This document shows, piece after piece, positions 40,858 to 64,000 of a DNA stretch of 64,000 nt (the stretch's first letter is position 1; every line of letters starts with the position of its first letter). The stretch is from a virus. Both the position numbers and the translations under genes were made by a program. Below the pieces are notes generated by a model. That model worked only from the letters and a program-made list of their open reading frames with translations, was not told the origin of the DNA and made no database searches. Where the stretch lies: IMG/VR virus record IMGVR_UViG_3300037258_000514, positions 1 to 64,000 of that record; one strand, written 5' to 3'.

Positions 40858-41328
40858 ATGAATCAGAACGCCCCGAATCCTGCCGATAAATACGTGTATC
40901 TCTTCGTCCGCCAAGATCTACCAATTCAACACCAAATTGTTCAATCCAATCACGCCACTCATATGATGGCTTCGATTCGCCCGGAAGAGTGCGTGCCCAA
41001 TATCGTACTTATTGGTGTGCCCGACTTAAACGCTCTTCTTCGTGTGGCGCAGAAGCTTAGAGCTAATCAAATTCCTCACTACGAGTGGGTCGAACCAGAT
41101 TTTGATTTAGGTTTTACTTCAATTGCTACTGCTCCGATTACTGGAGAGAAGCGTCAAGTTTTGAAGAACTATAGACTTTATTCCCCTGGAACCGTTGCGG
41201 TAAACGGCGTCGCTTGTATAGACCAGCCAATCCGCGCAGCTTGTCTCTTAACTGAGGACAGGGGAGCCAGTGCCCGAGTAGCTCAACAGCAAGAGCAGCC
41301 CGGTCTAAACGGGATGGCTGAAGGTTAA
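40858..41328 (+). CDS. Peptidyl-tRNA hydrolase 2-like protein
   Basis: Residues about 11-115 follow the PTH2/Bit1 pattern: Tyr-Val-Tyr-Leu-Phe-Val-Arg-Gln-Asp-Leu, then Gln-Ser-Asn-His-Ala-Thr-His in place of QCSHA, and Ile-Val-Leu-Ile-Gly-Val-Pro-Asp. A helix, Ile-Pro-His-Tyr and a final 'siataPi...' strand come next. Family members release peptides from stalled tRNAs, and some phage copies are of unknown activity; the invariant Cys-Ser is Ser-Asn here. The last 40 residues have no PTH2 counterpart, and the frame ends inside the first tRNA gene. Being co-transcribed with tRNAs supports a translation-related role. Confidence 0.55.
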   Translation: MNQNAPNPADKYVYLFVRQDLPIQHQIVQSNHATHMMASIRPEECVPNIVLIGVPDLNALLRVAQKLRANQIPHYEWVEPDFDLGFTSIATAPITGEKRQVLKNYRLYSPGTVAVNGVACIDQPIRAACLLTEDRGASARVAQQQEQPGLNGMAEG

Positions 41329-41347
41329 AGTCCTTCCTTGGGCACCA
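41272..41347 (+). tRNA. tRNA with CUA anticodon (amber suppressor)
   Basis: A 76-base cloverleaf with encoded CCA: acceptor GCCCGAG/CTTGGGC, TA, D-arm GCTC/GAGC with loop AACAGCAA, anticodon stem GCCCG/CGGGA (one G-A mismatch), loop GTCTAAA, variable TGGCT, T-arm GAAGG/CCTTC with loop TTAAAGT, then A and CCA. The loop centre after U33 is CUA, which reads the codon UAG. The D-loop lacks GG and the T-loop lacks the usual TTC, a paired loss. The amino acid cannot be told. The 5' two thirds overlap the end of the PTH2-like frame, whose TAA lies in the T-loop. Confidence 0.8.
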
Positions 41348-41405: not shown

Positions 41406-41486
41406 GCCGCTGTAGCTCAGATGGGCTGTATCCAGAGCAGCTTCCTTTTAGGGAGCAGGTCGGTGGTTCGATTCCATCCAGCGGCT
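41406..41486 (+). tRNA. tRNA with UUU anticodon (Lys-type), enlarged D-loop
   Basis: Acceptor GCCGCTG/CAGCGGC (7 bp), TA, D-stem GCTC/GAGC with a 16-base loop (normal is 7-11), anticodon stem GCTTC/GGAGC, loop CTTTTAG with UUU, and T-arm GGTGG/CCATC with loop TTCGATT. No CCA is encoded and the discriminator base is T, unlike ordinary tRNA-Lys. Function is likely but these oddities leave room for a decayed gene. Confidence 0.7.
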
Positions 41487-41502
41487 CTCTTTAAAATCGT
41501 GC

Positions 41503-41567: not shown

Positions 41568-42974
41568 TCATCCATTTTCACTCCCTTGCTGCAGTTGATT
41601 TGCCAGTTCCATTGTCATCGCAGTAGAATCCAAACAAAACTGTCCTATCCTGTAGTTCTGTGAAATTAGTGCTGTAAATCCATCCTCTGAATCTCTTCCA
41701 GCAGCAGCGTAAATTCTAGCTAACCCCAAACGCTTTTCCTCAGGAGTTTGACTATACGTTATAACGTTATCCGCTGTACCTATTTTCGACCAATCTTCTG
41801 CAATATGTTTCTTTCCCACAAGATTAGCTTCGTCAGACTCTTTATTACCTTGACTAGCTGTTACAAGTGCTTTATCTCTACTAACAGCAATTCCTCTAAG
41901 TTCCTTGTAGAGTCTACCTGTATCAATACGAAGAATCGAAGAATCAATCCTCATTAAATCCGCATAGTCAACGATGATGATATCTGGATCAAAGGGAATC
42001 TCATGTCCGGCGCCACGCTTAAGAGAATCAAGATACAAGCATAACTGCTCAGTTGATAACATCCCGGGCGGATATTCCTTTATTAGAAATGGAGGAAAAC
42101 TATTTGCCATTGCTAGTAACTTACGACTAACTTCTTTTCTCTTTGCAATGACAGAGTCTCTAATAATATCACGAAAACTAAGTACAACTCCACCTTCCCC
42201 GTCTCTTTGAAAGTAGGGAGTACGTACTTCTTGCGCCTCGTCTTTTGTTAAACTAAACAAAGCTTGAATATAACGTTTTGCTGTCTTCTCTTCGCTTAAT
42301 TCAAGTGTTAGATGAAGTACTTTATGATGATGTTGTATCGCTGCTTTTCCCACGTCTGTTAGCCACCAAGACTTTCCCCTCTTAGCAGCCGCGATGATAA
42401 ACATTAGTGTCTTACGTTCAGGTCTGATCCCCTTTCTATCAAATACTTCTATTCCTGATGAGAAAAATTCATGTTCTTCATTCTTATCCAGAAATCTAAA
42501 TGCTTGTCCAGGATCGAATAACTGTATCCCTTTAGATCCTTCTGTTTGTATTGATACTTGTTTGTAGAGAGCTTCTTTTGCTTGTTCGAGCTCGCCTTGA
42601 TCAACTAAATCTGTTGCTGTTTCAAGTGTTTTCTGTAGCTGCTGAATAGCGATGAAGTGATCGAGTTGTTCAATAATAAACTGCGGTTGGATTAATATGG
42701 ATTGCTTACGAAGTAAATCTATCTCTTGTTTTAAAACACGTCCTTCATCTCCGCGACGAAGTTCGCTCTCGAGTAAATACTCCAACTGCATACCGGGGGC
42801 GATGGAATACTTTTCGATATATGCAAGCGATGTCTTTGCTATATCTTGTGTTTGTTTGTTTGTAAAAAGAGAATTATCGCGTATTCTTAATGCAACCGTA
42901 GCTGCGTGTTCTGCACTAAATGCCAAAAGGCAGAGTACTGCTTCTTCGAGAGCAGCATTAGATATTTTGGTCAT
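41568..42974 (-). CDS. dnaB: Replicative DNA helicase, DnaB-like
   Basis: The 468-residue protein has an N-terminal helical domain (about 1-130) and a RecA-like domain. The Walker A segment is Ala-Ala-Ala-Lys-Arg-Gly-Lys-Ser (195-202), with Ala replacing the first Gly. Leu-Thr-Leu-Glu-Leu-Ser gives the catalytic Glu near 222-227. The Walker B strand is Ile-Ile-Ile-Val-Asp-Tyr-Ala-Asp near 335, and a sensor segment Thr-Ala-Ser-Gln follows. It would unwind DNA ahead of the phage polymerase. It is the last gene of the leftward operon. Confidence 0.85.
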   Translation of the reverse strand: MTKISNAALEEAVLCLLAFSAEHAATVALRIRDNSLFTNKQTQDIAKTSLAYIEKYSIAPGMQLEYLLESELRRGDEGRVLKQEIDLLRKQSILIQPQFIIEQLDHFIAIQQLQKTLETATDLVDQGELEQAKEALYKQVSIQTEGSKGIQLFDPGQAFRFLDKNEEHEFFSSGIEVFDRKGIRPERKTLMFIIAAAKRGKSWWLTDVGKAAIQHHHKVLHLTLELSEEKTAKRYIQALFSLTKDEAQEVRTPYFQRDGEGGVVLSFRDIIRDSVIAKRKEVSRKLLAMANSFPPFLIKEYPPGMLSTEQLCLYLDSLKRGAGHEIPFDPDIIIVDYADLMRIDSSILRIDTGRLYKELRGIAVSRDKALVTASQGNKESDEANLVGKKHIAEDWSKIGTADNVITYSQTPEEKRLGLARIYAAAGRDSEDGFTALISQNYRIGQFCLDSTAMTMELANQLQQGSENG

Positions 42975-42977
42975 TTA

Positions 42978-43175
42978 CTATCGAGCGGCGAGAATTGCTT
43001 TCTTAACTTCGCTTACAGGAACTGCTCCTGTTGCATTCTTCTGTTCAAGCATTAACTTAAAAAAGACTGAGAAGTTTTGATTTAATTCCGCGATCTGGGC
43101 TGTCGTCTCAACACGAAGTGCAGCTTCCATACTGTTTAGTGATTTAAACTGATTTCTAATTTCGTTAGATGTCAT
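42978..43175 (-). CDS. Small helical protein, unknown
   Basis: A 65-residue product, helical and Ala/Glu-rich, with Gln-Asn-Phe-Ser-Val-Phe-Phe-Lys in the middle. It starts on the stop of the preceding nuclease-QueD gene (ATGA overlap) and ends with TAG immediately followed by TAA, three bases before the helicase ATG. It may be a helicase partner or loader fragment, judged by position only. Confidence 0.55.
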   Translation of the reverse strand: MTSNEIRNQFKSLNSMEAALRVETTAQIAELNQNFSVFFKLMLEQKNATGAVPVSEVKKAILAAR

Positions 43176-44326
43176 TCTAGCTCCTTTGGTAAAACTAATA
43201 GCCCACTGTTTGTATAAACTAAGGAATACATTGTAGTTGATGTTAGTTCAAATGTTGCAGAGCACTTTCTTGTTTCCTCAACACAACATTTTACTAAGTG
43301 CACTCCTGTTCCTGTAAGTTGTTTTGGACCGACATGCTCAACAAGAAATTTAGCGATATTTTCAGCTGTAGGATTAAATGGAGTAATTACAACAGTTTTA
43401 TCAAGAGCCTTAAATGTTTTACTCCAAGGATCTTTCTTCCATATTAAAAATCTATGATCCCAGTTTGTTTCTAGCCATTGGCATAGAAGTGTGTTAATTA
43501 CTCCAAAATCAATTACTCTTCCTATTGAATCTAGAGAAGAAGCAACGCATGTAAAGTGTATTCTATAATTATGTCCATGAGCGTGGGAGCAAGCCCCTTC
43601 GTGTCCATATACTCTATGACCTGAAGAGAAATCGTGATAACGAGTAGCTGTAATTAAACTGTTATGAATTTTCTTAGCTATCCATAAGGGAATATCATGC
43701 TCCCAAAGTATTTCGACTTCCCATCCCTTTGCTTTGATAAAGCTAAGTCTTTGTTTTTCGTATGAAATACTTTTCTCTAAAACTTGTTTATCTACAATTT
43801 TATCAAATCCACATATCGAGCAGTTATGCCAAAAACATCCATTAACTTCGAGAATTTTCTTCTCATTTAGTGAGGCAAAATCTACTTGGTATCTTCCGAT
43901 ATGATATTGCCTTTTCCATCCCTGAAGATATTTCGCAACTAAATCTTCTACTTTTGATGTTTTTCTTCTGCCAACTTCAGGAGAATGAAAAATCCAATGT
44001 GCACCATTTTTTAGTGCTGTTGAAATCTTCTTAGCTATTTCAGGATCTTTAGCTATATTCTTCTCGCCATGCTGATATCCTACTTTAGGCATAGAAGTTC
44101 CGTAAATACCTAAGTATGTTTTTCCTTTTGTTCCGTGTCCTTGTTTATAAACAGGTCCGGATTTTACTTCGTGCGACAATCTTATAATTTTTGTTCCGCA
44201 TCCACAGGAACATTCTACTTCTATGGGTGTTAAGCATAAATTGCATATAAACGATTTAATATCGTTAGCTAGAAAACGGTCCTCGCAGTATTTGCAACTA
44301 CGCTCTTTCGGTGTAGTTAAACGCAT
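43172..44326 (-). CDS. queD: Vsr-like nuclease fused to QueD (6-carboxytetrahydropterin synthase)
   Basis: The 384-residue protein has two parts. Residues 1-225 carry CxxC pairs (11/14, 28/31), a middle DNA-binding region, and a Vsr/EDxHD-type nuclease: Val-Asp-Phe (148-150), Asn-Gly-Cys-Phe-Trp-His-Asn-Cys (162-169) and Trp-Glu-His-Asp (208-211). Residues 227-384 are QueD: Ser-Ser-Gly-His237-Arg, Cys246 with His250-Gly-His252, Trp-Asp-His-Arg near 294 and Val-Glu-Glu-Thr near 355. QueD makes the precursor for 7-deazaguanine. The link between domains is direct. A homing nuclease that entered the queD start in frame is the simplest explanation. Confidence 0.8.
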   Translation of the reverse strand: MRLTTPKERSCKYCEDRFLANDIKSFICNLCLTPIEVECSCGCGTKIIRLSHEVKSGPVYKQGHGTKGKTYLGIYGTSMPKVGYQHGEKNIAKDPEIAKKISTALKNGAHWIFHSPEVGRRKTSKVEDLVAKYLQGWKRQYHIGRYQVDFASLNEKKILEVNGCFWHNCSICGFDKIVDKQVLEKSISYEKQRLSFIKAKGWEVEILWEHDIPLWIAKKIHNSLITATRYHDFSSGHRVYGHEGACSHAHGHNYRIHFTCVASSLDSIGRVIDFGVINTLLCQWLETNWDHRFLIWKKDPWSKTFKALDKTVVITPFNPTAENIAKFLVEHVGPKQLTGTGVHLVKCCVEETRKCSATFELTSTTMYSLVYTNSGLLVLPKELE

Positions 44327-44336
44327 AAATCGTTTC

Positions 44337-44588
44337 TCACTTCTTGTCCCTCACTAACTGCGCTTTCTTTTTTGCTCTGTTGATTCTTCTATGTCTTGCT
44401 GAATGACAGGCTCTGCATCTCGGTTGTACTTTCCACCACCATCTATAGCCGCTATAATGATCGTACTCACAAGGACCCCCACCACAATCCACGCAAGGCA
44501 GATAAAAGGGTGGATCAATAGTACCTTTGCGTATAGCGCGGTAAATGCGACAGTGACAGCGATGAGCCACTTTGTTCTTCGTTGCCAT
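44337..44588 (-). CDS. Small HNH-type zinc protein
   Basis: The 83-residue product has Cys-Val-Asp-Cys-Gly, Glu-Tyr-Asp-His-Tyr-Ser-Gly-Tyr and Arg-Cys-Arg-Ala-Cys-His, the order C-x2-C, DH, C-x2-CH of small HNH endonucleases, and a very basic C-terminus. In phages such small HNH proteins serve as nicking or packaging nucleases or as mobile elements. The overlapping frame 44354-44593 has no such motif and is discarded. It starts two bases after the stop of the small gene upstream. Confidence 0.65.
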   Translation of the reverse strand: MATKNKVAHRCHCRIYRAIRKGTIDPPFYLPCVDCGGGPCEYDHYSGYRWWWKVQPRCRACHSARHRRINRAKKKAQLVRDKK

Positions 44589-44589
44589 T

Positions 44590-44745
44590 TCATTTAGATT
44601 TTGCCTGGTCGTCTGCTATTTTTGTCGCTGCCGCAATTCGGGCAAGTTCAGCAAACATAGAACTACCTTTAATTGTTTGTGAAATTCTTCTTCTTCGAGC
44701 TTTAGATTTACCTCTATTGGCATTATACTTCTTATTAATCGCCAT
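44590..44745 (-). CDS. Very small basic protein (51 aa)
   Basis: ATG at 44745 lies within the last codons of the SbcC-like gene, and the TGA at 44590 is adjacent to the next start, so the frame fills the gap exactly. The first half is Arg/Lys-rich, the second an Ala-rich helix. A small DNA-binding protein is possible. Coupled translation supports a true gene. Confidence 0.5.
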   Translation of the reverse strand: MAINKKYNANRGKSKARRRRISQTIKGSSMFAELARIAAATKIADDQAKSK

Positions 44746-46828
44746 CATGCTCACTTACCTTATAAATTTTACTTCCTGTTGTTTCTTTTACTACAGTCCA
44801 TATTTCCTTAAAACCACTGAACGCTAATGCTCTGTGATCTACGATCCAGATTTGTTTATCATTTGCTTCTGCTCGATACTGAAGTGATTGTAATAAATCT
44901 TCAATACCTTCTGATGATAACCATGATGATGGTTCATCCCACACTTCAAATGTAAATCTAACTCCTGCTGCTCTATGTATTAAACTAGCTAATCCCATAG
45001 CAATAGCAAGGCGAAGGCGCTGTGTTTCTCCCCCTGACCATACATCCCAAGTACCTTGTGCCGTAGGAGAACTAATATGTATTTGTACACCTAACTTGAT
45101 CGTAGCTGATTTTGTTTCGGTTTCAGTGGCGAGTGCCACACTCCAGCCTGTCAACCCTAGCGCACTTATTGCAGACTGAATTTCGAGTTGTAACACAGCA
45201 AGTACCTGCTGAACGAAATAAAGCCGAATGCGTTTAAAACCATGCTTCCAATATTCGGCGGCGATAACTTGTGATTCTATTAATTTATACTCAGTTTCTT
45301 GAGCTACCAGCAGTGTGAGTAAACGTGATCTTTCTTCTTTAACTCTTTCAAGTTTTTTTATGAAAGGATTTTCTTCGATACTAACTGCTGCCATCTGTAT
45401 GGCGTAAGGATCTTTCTTATTCTTAACATCTACAATTTGCTTTGTAAATGGATTGTTTTCGTTTTCGAGCACTGCAAGTTGTTTTATGTAAGGATCGTTA
45501 TCGTGTGCGCGAACGAGCGCCGAAGCGTCTTTCTCAATCTGTCGAATCTGATCTTTTAGGCTTTTTACCTCCTTCTCAAGTATTTGCTTCTTACCATTAT
45601 GTTGAGAATTTGTTACGATGCAACCCTGAATCTGTAAGTTAAAGTCTATAATTTCTTTAGATTTAACTTCTACAACAGCCTGCGCTTTATCACGAGTGTC
45701 TTCGAGAGTTTTCTTTATCTTGCCAACACACTCAAGTTCGTGCTTCTTCTTATCATGTTCGATCTTCTGAAAGCACGTAGGGCACGTTTCTTGTGTCCAG
45801 AGGGAGGCTGCCGTATCACAACTCGCTATATCGTATGTTGTCTTATATAAGATTGCTGTCTGTTCTTTATTTATCTTTTCAAATTCTTTTACAAGGAGTT
45901 GCATTTGTTGAATGTGTCCCTGTAAAGGATTACTTACAAAGTTCTCATACTCAAACTCTAACGGTGCAAGACGTGTTTCAAGATCTTCTATCTGCTGAAG
46001 TTTATCTTCAGCTTCTGTCATTTTGGATTGTTTCCACTCAGCGATACTTTCTGTAAGATGAATGATCTGCTCTTGTTGCTTTCCCAACCAGTTTATAGCT
46101 TGACTTTCAAGTAGGGTTACTTGACGTACTTTTTCATCAGCCCAATCACGTGATTGTTTATCTAGTGACGCAAGCCGCAAGTCTCTTTCAAGATTCCAAG
46201 TTTGTATATCAGCTGATAAGGTTTCTTCAGTAGCTAATGAGTTTAAACTGCCGTTAGTAAAAGCCCGTGCTGTTTTCTTTTGTTCCAAAACTTTTTCAAG
46301 ACTGGATTGCTTGCTACTTGCAGCTTCAGTTGCTTTCTGCCAGACGCTTAGTGAGAGTACTTCGTCAAGTAGAGCGCCACGTTCCGACGTATCTTTATCC
46401 GGAAATAATTCGACACCTTGTCCGAAGATAACAGAATTAAGAAAACGAAGTTTAGATAAGCAGAAAAGTTGATCTACTTCATTTTGTGTTACGATCACGT
46501 CGTTTATTTCGACCTTCATTGGAGGACCGTAACGTTTTACTTTGTATAGGGTTTCATCTATAAACACATGAAATTCTACTTCTGTAGTTTCCTGTCCCCA
46601 ACTTATTACAGAAGATGTTCGTGCACCTTTTATGCTAGTGCCTGTTACACACCAACAAACAGCATCCCAAAATGAACTTTTACCAGCTCCATTAGCTCCG
46701 AGTCGTAGATCTACCTTATTATTGCCTGATAGAAGTTTTAATCCATTTGTATCAGGAAACACAACTGTTTCACTAGAGAACGAACGAAAGTTCTTAATCG
46801 TTACGCGTTGTGGTTTAATAGTCTTCAT
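44735..46828 (-). CDS. sbcC: SbcC/Rad50-like recombination ATPase
   Basis: The 697-residue protein has Walker A Gly-Ala-Asn-Gly-Ala-Gly-Lys-Ser-Ser (44-52), a long coiled coil with a Cys-Pro-Thr-Cys zinc hook near residue 345, the signature Trp-Ser-Gly-Gly-Glu-Thr-Gln-Arg-Leu near 605, and Walker B Phe-Glu-Val-Trp-Asp-Glu-Pro. This is the SbcC/Rad50/T4 gp46 architecture at the short length typical for phages. With the SbcD-like product at 48000 it should form an end-processing nuclease. Three small genes separate them. A gap of 96 bases with a repeated core (46890-46901) precedes it, so it may have its own promoter. Confidence 0.9.
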   Translation of the reverse strand: MKTIKPQRVTIKNFRSFSSETVVFPDTNGLKLLSGNNKVDLRLGANGAGKSSFWDAVCWCVTGTSIKGARTSSVISWGQETTEVEFHVFIDETLYKVKRYGPPMKVEINDVIVTQNEVDQLFCLSKLRFLNSVIFGQGVELFPDKDTSERGALLDEVLSLSVWQKATEAASSKQSSLEKVLEQKKTARAFTNGSLNSLATEETLSADIQTWNLERDLRLASLDKQSRDWADEKVRQVTLLESQAINWLGKQQEQIIHLTESIAEWKQSKMTEAEDKLQQIEDLETRLAPLEFEYENFVSNPLQGHIQQMQLLVKEFEKINKEQTAILYKTTYDIASCDTAASLWTQETCPTCFQKIEHDKKKHELECVGKIKKTLEDTRDKAQAVVEVKSKEIIDFNLQIQGCIVTNSQHNGKKQILEKEVKSLKDQIRQIEKDASALVRAHDNDPYIKQLAVLENENNPFTKQIVDVKNKKDPYAIQMAAVSIEENPFIKKLERVKEERSRLLTLLVAQETEYKLIESQVIAAEYWKHGFKRIRLYFVQQVLAVLQLEIQSAISALGLTGWSVALATETETKSATIKLGVQIHISSPTAQGTWDVWSGGETQRLRLAIAMGLASLIHRAAGVRFTFEVWDEPSSWLSSEGIEDLLQSLQYRAEANDKQIWIVDHRALAFSGFKEIWTVVKETTGSKIYKVSEHDGD

Positions 46829-54300: not shown

Positions 54301-55089
54301 TTATCTTACATTCATAATCTTGTGCATCTGAACCGAAATTCTCCAGTTTGGAAATTTCTTCTGCCAGTCTAAACATAATTTGAGATTCGTCATATTAACT
54401 TTATTTTCAAAGTTAATTGGTTGCAGCCATACTAGCTGATGTTTTAAAATCTCTTCAGGTAGTTGATAAGGATCAAATTTTTCATCTACAAGTAATTTTA
54501 TTTCATTTGCAATCTTTAACATTTCAGGCAAAGCCTTAAATTTTGGTGAACATGTAATCCATATATATGCGTGAGAATCGAAACTAGTAAAGGTTTTATT
54601 TAATGGAATTGTTCCTGAAGTCTCAAGTCGGATTTCTTTTCCTGCATTATGAAGTATATCAACAAGTGATGTTAATGGATGCATCATAGGTTCGCCTCCT
54701 GAAATGCAAACGTACTTAACTTCTTGCGGAAGTAATGCAATTATTTCGTAAGCAAATAAGCGTTCTTTTACTCTATAGTCTGTATCACACTCCATTGTTC
54801 GCCCGTCAAGTATTGTACACTTTTCTGTGTAAATAGGTAGAAGCGCGCTCTTTTCTTGAAAATATTTCGCTACAGCACAATTCGGCTTATGTCCAATATC
54901 CGGATCACAGTCGCTTGTACATTTATCAGGTTGAACAGGATTTTCATAACGCTCTTTTGAATAAGGCTTACCAACAGTACAACCGGCTAACCTAATGAAT
55001 GTCTGTAATTGACCACTATACGTTCCTTCACCTTGAGGTGATGTAAAAATTTCTGCTATTGGATATTTATATTCTTTAGATTTAAACAT
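54301..55089 (-). CDS. queE: QueE, 7-carboxy-7-deazaguanine synthase
   Basis: The 262-residue protein starts with Ile-Phe-Thr-Ser-Pro-Gln-Gly-Glu-Gly and Phe-Ile-Arg-Leu-Ala-Gly-Cys37, typical for QueE. Between Cys37 and Cys-Asp-Thr-Asp (Cys101) lies an insert of about 60 residues with Cys57, Cys61, Cys71 and Cys91, longer than in the E. coli or B. subtilis enzymes. Ile-Ser-Gly-Gly-Glu-Pro (129-134) and Glu-Thr-Ser-Gly-Thr near 155 are the SAM-binding motifs. It forms CDG from the QueD product, using a [4Fe-4S] cluster. The extra Cys residues could bind an added metal. Confidence 0.85.
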   Translation of the reverse strand: MFKSKEYKYPIAEIFTSPQGEGTYSGQLQTFIRLAGCTVGKPYSKERYENPVQPDKCTSDCDPDIGHKPNCAVAKYFQEKSALLPIYTEKCTILDGRTMECDTDYRVKERLFAYEIIALLPQEVKYVCISGGEPMMHPLTSLVDILHNAGKEIRLETSGTIPLNKTFTSFDSHAYIWITCSPKFKALPEMLKIANEIKLLVDEKFDPYQLPEEILKHQLVWLQPINFENKVNMTNLKLCLDWQKKFPNWRISVQMHKIMNVR

Positions 55090-63786: not shown

Positions 63787-63947
63787 AGCGTTTTTACTTT
63801 TCTTGTCGGTGTTTTACATCTCATGCAGTGCATATCTTCTTTCCTACACTTGCCCTGTGAGAGAAGATAAAATCTTGCCTTACAAGACCCGCAGTAAATC
63901 TCGAAGATTTTTTCGCCTTTACTGTGCTTAGAAAGAAATTTGCTCAT
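63783..63947 (-). CDS. Small zinc-ribbon protein (54 aa)
   Basis: ATG at 63947 overlaps the stop of the partial gene before it (ATGA), and its own TGA overlaps the next ATG. The product has Tyr-Cys-Gly-Ser-Cys-Lys and, about 20 residues later, Cys-Met-Arg-Cys-Lys, a zinc ribbon, with a Lys/Arg-rich remainder. Such ribbons are typical of small phage transcription or DNA-binding proteins. Confidence 0.6.
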   Translation of the reverse strand: MSKFLSKHSKGEKIFEIYCGSCKARFYLLSQGKCRKEDMHCMRCKTPTRKVKTL

Positions 63948-64000
63948 ATTACTGCTAATTCGGCTTTAAGAATACACTCTTGGATTTTGTCCCAGTAGCG
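63944..64000 (-). CDS. Partial gene, C-terminal 18 residues
   Basis: The frame is open from the window edge to a TGA that overlaps the next ATG. The visible end reads Arg-Tyr-Trp-Asp-Lys-Ile-Gln-Glu and is helical. Too short for identification; the coupling with the zinc-ribbon gene shows the operon continues to the right. Confidence 0.45.
   Translation of the reverse strand, partial: RYWDKIQECILKAELAVI

What the first reader, a model, noticed from the sequence alone, without database searches (positions are those of the whole stretch)
43172..44326. Vsr-like homing nuclease fused in frame to QueD
One frame codes zinc knuckles, an EDxHD/Vsr nuclease and a complete QueD with Cys246, His237, His250 and His252. 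It joins a selfish-type nuclease with a base-modification enzyme. It may be a homing gene that captured the queD start, or a functional link in which the nuclease cuts unmodified DNA while QueD helps protect phage DNA.
Basis: partly seen in the sequence, partly recalled or inferred. Interest (0 to 1): 0.75.

Follow-up and report, generated by a model that had tools for sequence, protein, structure and literature searches.

The report
Phage homing nuclease fused to QueD
In one phage, a selfish DNA-cutting gene sits on the start of the phage's only queD gene, a step in making modified DNA bases, so that the QueD enzyme can apparently be made only as the tail of the nuclease.

Summary
Window 43172-44326(-) is one 384-aa frame. 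It has cysteine pairs at the N-terminus (residues 11-43), a Vsr/EDxHD-type nuclease (about 120-212) and a full QueD (225-361). In-frame ATG/GTG/TTG codons occur only at residues 1, 50, 79, 342 and 366, so QueD has no standard start of its own. It is the only QueD found in the 176-kb phage record, which also carries FolE, QueE, QueC and DpdA. The QueD half keeps 45 of 46 strongly conserved positions. A related phage (G001) has an unfused queD in the same place, between SbcC and DnaB. None of 80 close QueD loci and none of 70 pattern hits shows this fusion. The nuclease fold matches Vsr and I-Bth0305I; its residues read E-D-H-E, because the last Asp of EDxHD is Glu190. The best account is a homing-type endonuclease gene that landed on the start of queD, merged frames and took over its translation start, leaving QueD working as a C-terminal domain. 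A designed link between cutting and base modification is not supported, though a related nuclease is fused to a Mom-type DNA-modification domain. It is a new variant of a known kind, seen once.

The parts
43172..44326 (-). Nuclease-QueD fusion ORF, 384 aa, ATG start, TGA stop; the stop overlaps the ATG of the next ORF
44198..44296 (-). Zinc-knuckle-like cysteines (residues 11-43: C11, C14, C28, C31, C39, C41, C43)
   Evidence: read from the translation; this stretch is low-confidence in the model
43691..43969 (-). Vsr/EDxHD-type nuclease domain (residues 120-212; E127, D149, E160, H167, and E190 in place of the last Asp)
43655..43690 (-). Junction: rest of the last nuclease helix (residues 213-224); codon 224 is TTA where standalone QueDs have their start
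43244..43654 (-). QueD domain (residues 225-361) with H237, C246, H250, H252, D290, H291, E351
43175..43243 (-). C-terminal tail beyond the QueD match (residues 362-384), low confidence in the model
44337..44588 (-). 83-aa Endo VII-like small nuclease ORF directly upstream
   Evidence: phrog_2340 E 0.0016; no Pfam match at E 0.01
42978..43175 (-). 65-aa ORF of unknown function; its ATG overlaps the fusion's stop
41568..42974 (-). DnaB-like helicase, right-hand flank shared with relative G001
44735..46828 (-). SbcC-like subunit, left-hand flank shared with relative G001
54301..55089 (-). QueE-like radical SAM protein, partner enzyme of the pathway
63944..64000 (-). 3' end of the DpdA-like transglycosylase gene (whole gene at 63944-65005 of the record, past the window edge)

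Best explanation
A homing-type endonuclease gene of the Vsr/EDxHD kind inserted at the 5' end of the phage's only queD gene. Its reading frame runs without a stop into queD, whose own start codon is gone. Shown: one open frame, no standard start for QueD alone, both domains with their folds, an unfused queD at the same place in a related phage, and the other four enzymes of the 7-deazaguanine pathway in the record. Inferred: the ribosome starts at the nuclease ATG and makes one 384-aa protein; its C-terminal QueD domain works in making preQ0 for DNA modification; its N-terminal nuclease cuts, or once cut, queD-region DNA lacking the insertion, so that the gene is copied into it. With the start taken over, the phage could not lose the nuclease frame without also losing QueD.
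For: The frame is open and in-frame starts are only at residues 1, 50, 79, 342 and 366. One PTPS match in the 175,952-bp record; FolE, QueC, QueE and DpdA are present. The QueD half keeps 45 of 46 positions that are at least 95% conserved in 70 distinct relatives, with an ordinary branch length (0.82, where many unclustered rows are 0.8-1.5). The nuclease fold matches 1cw0 (E 3.9e-4) and 3r3p, I-Bth0305I (1.1e-3). A second gene of the type stands free in the same record, and none at E 0.01 was found in G001. G001 has queD unfused between SbcC and DnaB. None of 80 viral QueD loci is fused. Relatives of the nuclease overlap the start codon of the next gene in other phages: an Fe-S_biosyn gene in 11 of 37 loci and a terminase gene in 4 of 37. 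An in-frame run of such a nuclease into RecA's C-terminal part is seen in L166.
Against: No closely related isolate with and without the nuclease was found, so the exact insertion boundary and recent homing are not shown. QueD of G001 is only 45% identical, while the fused QueD is 66% identical to that of Pseudomonas phage NP1, so the locus history may be less simple than an insertion into a resident gene. Gene overlap as such is common in phages: 9 of 24 neighbouring + strand pairs overlap in the NP1 stretch (counted by hand), so the overlap pattern of the relatives is not special. E190 in place of Asp may mean that the nuclease is impaired. No target site was tested.
Confidence: 0.7

Rival explanations
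1. A functional bifunctional enzyme: the nuclease cuts DNA lacking deazaguanine (host or competing phage) and the physical link to QueD couples cutting to the modification pathway.
For: All five pathway genes are present. A related Vsr-type nuclease in L151 is fused in frame to a Mom-type DNA modification domain (Pfam Mom E 9.9e-26), so nuclease-modifier fusions do occur.
Against: QueD acts on a small molecule and not on DNA. The fusion was seen once (0 of 80 QueD loci; 0 of 70 pattern hits). The other pathway genes stand elsewhere. The nuclease has E190 where 16 of 17 relatives have Asp and one a gap.
Confidence: 0.07
2. A dead end: the insertion broke translation of queD, or the nuclease half is decaying, and the fusion is a recent and transient allele.
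For: Seen in one record only; E190 departs from Asp; start codon of QueD lost.
Against: The frame is fully open over 384 codons, QueD keeps 45 of 46 conserved positions, and it is the only QueD beside a full pathway. A very recent event could still look like this.
Confidence: 0.15
3. An intein or a self-splicing intron removes the nuclease part, so mature QueD is not fused.
For: The residues before the junction read HN-S, as at an intein end. Vsr-type nucleases do sit in inteins and introns (L131 intein match; group II introns in PMC12350094, passages read). L166 RecA is interrupted by such a nuclease.
Against: No intein or Hint match in the fusion. Only 12-13 residues lie between the nuclease and QueD and they form the last helix of the nuclease. 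No Rfam intron at the locus; that control is weak, since Rfam also found none in L166. No upstream piece of queD was seen.
Confidence: 0.04
4. An assembly chimera joined two unrelated sequences.
For: The record is a virus contig whose source is not told, and no second copy could be checked.
Against: Both flanking genes, DnaB and SbcC, flank queD in G001 too. GC of the two halves is alike (35.0% and 36.0%). The frame is open across the joint.
Confidence: 0.04

Closest known systems
I-Bth0305I and other EDxHD homing endonucleases (3r3p; PMC3943268, passages read)
   Same: Catalytic fold, E/D/H positions, zinc-type extra region for DNA binding
   Different: Not in an intron, fused to QueD, last Asp is Glu190
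QueD of siphophages with deazaguanine pathway genes, such as Pseudomonas phage NP1 (66% identity)
   Same: Full QueD domain with zinc and catalytic residues, other pathway enzymes present
   Different: NP1 QueD stands alone with its own start; in NP1 an HNH homing gene lies upstream of the dpdA-type gene and overlaps its start
ShiLan and lone LAGLIDADG insertions in phage DNA methylase genes (PMC11855218, abstract and passages read)
   Same: Endonuclease insertion read through in frame with a DNA-modification gene, with no sign of splicing
   Different: There the element lies inside the methylase gene, and the ShiLan HNH is read in another frame; here the nuclease is the N-terminal domain itself
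mobE in Aeh1 nrdA and other T4-type free-standing homing genes (PMC2988022, passages read)
   Same: Homing gene inserted in a metabolic gene that stays functional; overlapping frames
   Different: mobE splits nrdA in two; here queD is whole apart from its Met codon
Vsr-Mom protein in L151 (IMGVR_UViG_3300037088_000815)
   Same: Related nuclease N-terminal to a DNA-modification domain
   Different: Mom acts on DNA; QueD makes a precursor

Membership tests
EDxHD (Vsr-type) homing endonucleases | Vsr-like catalytic fold | tested here: met
   Foldseek 1cw0 E 3.9e-4, 3r3p E 1.1e-3; profile hits to the same PDB entries
EDxHD (Vsr-type) homing endonucleases | Residues E, D, H, D of the motif | tested here: not met
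   E127, D149 and H167 kept; last Asp is E190, with Asp in 16 of 17 relatives and a gap in one. Which column is the last D follows from recalled Vsr numbering (D97). So it is filed as EDxHD-like only.
EDxHD (Vsr-type) homing endonucleases | Extra DNA-binding region (zinc or NUMOD) | tested here: inconclusive
   Paired cysteines at 11-43, no Pfam match there
EDxHD (Vsr-type) homing endonucleases | Allele without the gene at the same locus | tested here: inconclusive
   G001 has unfused queD in synteny but only 45% identical; no close isolate
EDxHD (Vsr-type) homing endonucleases | Site-specific cleavage and homing | not testable with these tools
   -
QueD (6-carboxytetrahydropterin synthase) | PTPS fold with zinc histidines and catalytic Cys | tested here: met
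   NCBIfam equivalog cut-off not reached (66.2 against 89.25 bits)
QueD (6-carboxytetrahydropterin synthase) | Catalytic activity | not testable with these tools
   -
Vsr mismatch repair endonuclease | NCBIfam cut-off for vsr | tested here: not met
   26.6 against 97.85 bits
Intein | Splicing domain blocks | tested here: not met
   No intein or Hint match at E 1
Group I or II intron | Ribozyme match at the locus | tested here: inconclusive
   None at E 1, but the search also found none in L166

The most novel reading that the evidence does not exclude
Start capture as a way to stay: the selfish nuclease has made itself unlosable by becoming the only translation start of a gene that the phage needs for its DNA modification. 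The out-of-frame start overlaps of related nucleases with iscA-type and terminase genes would be milder stages of the same strategy.
Probability: 0.25. Interest if true: 0.6.

Novelty: new variant of a known kind. Interest (0 to 1): 0.42.

Why it matters
Free-standing homing genes are thought to persist by landing beside genes without harming them. Here one appears to have taken over the start of a whole metabolic enzyme, so that the nuclease and a DNA-modification step must be made together. If the phage carries deazaguanine in its DNA, the fused QueD works, which would show that a homing gene can be kept by being welded to a needed enzyme. It also gives a single clean protein with which to ask whether cutting and base modification interact.

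Tried and rejected
Single-sequence searches for the nuclease found nothing in viral contigs (patterns from one sequence) and no relative in genome contigs (12 pattern stretches, none confirmed); an alignment search then gave 37 viral loci. The helicase search found nothing; the SbcC search found G001 and L092; L092's record had no match to the fusion protein. Patterns for the same fusion gave 30, 9 and 31 stretches, none with QueD. A joint alignment of both halves misaligned them, so the halves were modelled with separate alignments; in the full-length model the nuclease half is poor. An intein and an intron were considered and set aside. TAG reassignment was considered because of a CTA-anticodon tRNA and set aside: 25 of 117 ORFs of 150 aa or more end in TAG, segments overlapping by 1 kb counted as they stand. 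Enrichment of start overlap among the nuclease relatives was dropped as an argument because 9 of 24 ordinary NP1 gene pairs overlap too. Ten paper searches listed no report of a homing nuclease fused to QueD; the library holds open-licence papers only.

Full report
What is there. The ORF at 43172-44326(-) is a single frame of 384 codons. Pfam, PHROGs and NCBIfam place a QueD-type PTPS domain at residues 223-361 and a Vsr/DUF559-type nuclease before it. A model of the nuclease part, built with 16 relatives, is confident from about residue 121 (block means mostly 88-98) to the end (84), and its best PDB matches are Vsr (1cw0, E 3.9e-4) and I-Bth0305I (3r3p, E 1.1e-3). A model of the whole protein, with QueD relatives only, is confident for the QueD part and matches E. 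coli QueD and other PTPS structures. The last nuclease helix (209-223) runs directly into the first QueD strand at 225.

Can QueD be made alone? In-frame ATG, GTG or TTG codons exist only at residues 1, 50, 79, 342 and 366. Starts at 50 or 79 would still include the nuclease, and those at 342 and 366 lie past most of the QueD active site. Standalone relatives start with M-ITATRYHD or the like; here the codon before ITATRYHD is TTA. A single change from TTG would explain that, but this is speculation. An ATT codon at 225 cannot be excluded as a rare start. The only GGAG-type site near the junction lies about 45 bases before it.

Is QueD likely to work? It is the only PTPS match in the 175,952-bp record. 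FolE (PF01227 E 1.5e-61), QueC (PF06508 E 1.7e-53), QueE (phrog_2076 E 3.7e-29) and a DpdA-like transglycosylase (phrog_887 E 5.3e-37) are encoded elsewhere in the record. Against 70 distinct relatives (84 loci less duplicates), 45 of 46 columns conserved in at least 95% are kept; the exception is K278N. Its branch in the tree is not unusually long, and its place is unresolved.

Is the nuclease intact? E127, D149, E160 and H167 are kept. The column that should be the last Asp of EDxHD holds Glu190; 16 of the 17 aligned relatives have Asp and one has a gap. E127 itself is Glu in 14 of 17 relatives and His in 3. The change is conservative and may or may not impair cutting.

Locus comparison. G001, a 180-kb relative found through SbcC, shares many genes at about 25-76% identity. 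It carries an unfused queD with its own ATG between SbcC and DnaB, followed by a queE that contains an intein-like insertion. The same flanks hold the fusion here. Its QueD is 45% identical to the fused one, less than NP1's 66%, although NP1's other pathway proteins are 25-51% identical; so exchange of queD together with the nuclease is possible. G001 has no nuclease of this type at E 0.01 (its last 30 bases were not fetched).

How common is it? Of 263 viral stretches that encode a QueD relative, the best 80 were kept; by eye, each shows a start codon within about 13 codons of the QueD core. The nuclease profile hit only six of the 80 loci (L006-L011, the same sequence), weakly and 1.6-2.6 kb away. 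Patterns for the same joint gave 70 stretches in all, none with QueD. The tool may leave out records very near the window.

What the nuclease's relatives do. Of 37 viral loci (found by one motif, so a biased sample), 6 have an in-frame C-terminal extension of 150 aa or more: L131 (weak intein match), L151 (Mom, E 9.9e-26), L157, L159 and L161 (like sequences; L159 matches PHROG 559 and 3339) and L166 (RecA C-terminal part, E 6.7e-9). In 11 of 37 the nuclease frame ends past the start codon of an Fe-S_biosyn gene and in 4 of 37 of a terminase-type gene (Pfam checked on one or two representatives, the rest by like sequence). This shows that such genes can sit on the start of a neighbour, but 9 of 24 ordinary pairs in NP1 overlap too.

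Verdict. The fused frame is real. It is most simply read as a homing-type gene that took over the translation start of queD, with QueD kept as a working domain. Function of either half was not tested. Literature: passages of PMC3943268, PMC12350094, PMC6083498, PMC10448857, PMC11855218 and PMC2988022 were read; the other papers were seen in search listings only.

Noticed in passing
window 44337-44588 (-): 83-aa Endo VII-like ORF (weak phrog_2340 match) 10 bases upstream of the fusion; Endo VII-type homing nucleases are known (F-CphI, PMC6083498), so two homing-type genes may sit in tandem.
   Followed up: partly
L091 13060-14667 and 14930-17572: queE of relative G001 carries an intein-like insertion with an HNH-like motif at the radical SAM cysteine motif, and its DnaB gene matches in two pieces with a long insert between.
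   Followed up: partly
L097 925-1740 (record about 173.0-173.8 kb): Second, free-standing Vsr/EDxHD-type gene of 271 aa in the same record; weaker profile hits at L082 14527-15072, L083 2956-3711 and L087 15765-16511.
   Followed up: partly
L151 2554-4017: A Vsr-type nuclease fused in frame to a Mom-family DNA modification domain.
   Followed up: partly
L140-L148, L152, L158: Vsr-type homing genes whose 3' ends overlap the start codon of an Fe-S_biosyn (iscA-type) gene by 4 to 29 bases.
   Followed up: partly
L166 1529-3846: RecA gene interrupted by a Vsr-type nuclease whose frame runs into the RecA C-terminal part.
   Followed up: partly
window 41272-41347 (+): tRNA with anticodon CTA (called tRNA-Pyl by ARAGORN) and a tRNA-Trp at 41406-41487; no sign of TAG reassignment.
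   Followed up: partly
L082 and L083 (record about 81-99 kb): Dense array of tRNA genes (6 and 26 calls, 2 shared by overlap), one with a four-base anticodon (cgat).
   Followed up: no
L088 13373-13816: Phage NP1 has an HNH homing gene between folE and the dpdA-type gene, overlapping the start of the latter by 4 bases.
   Followed up: no
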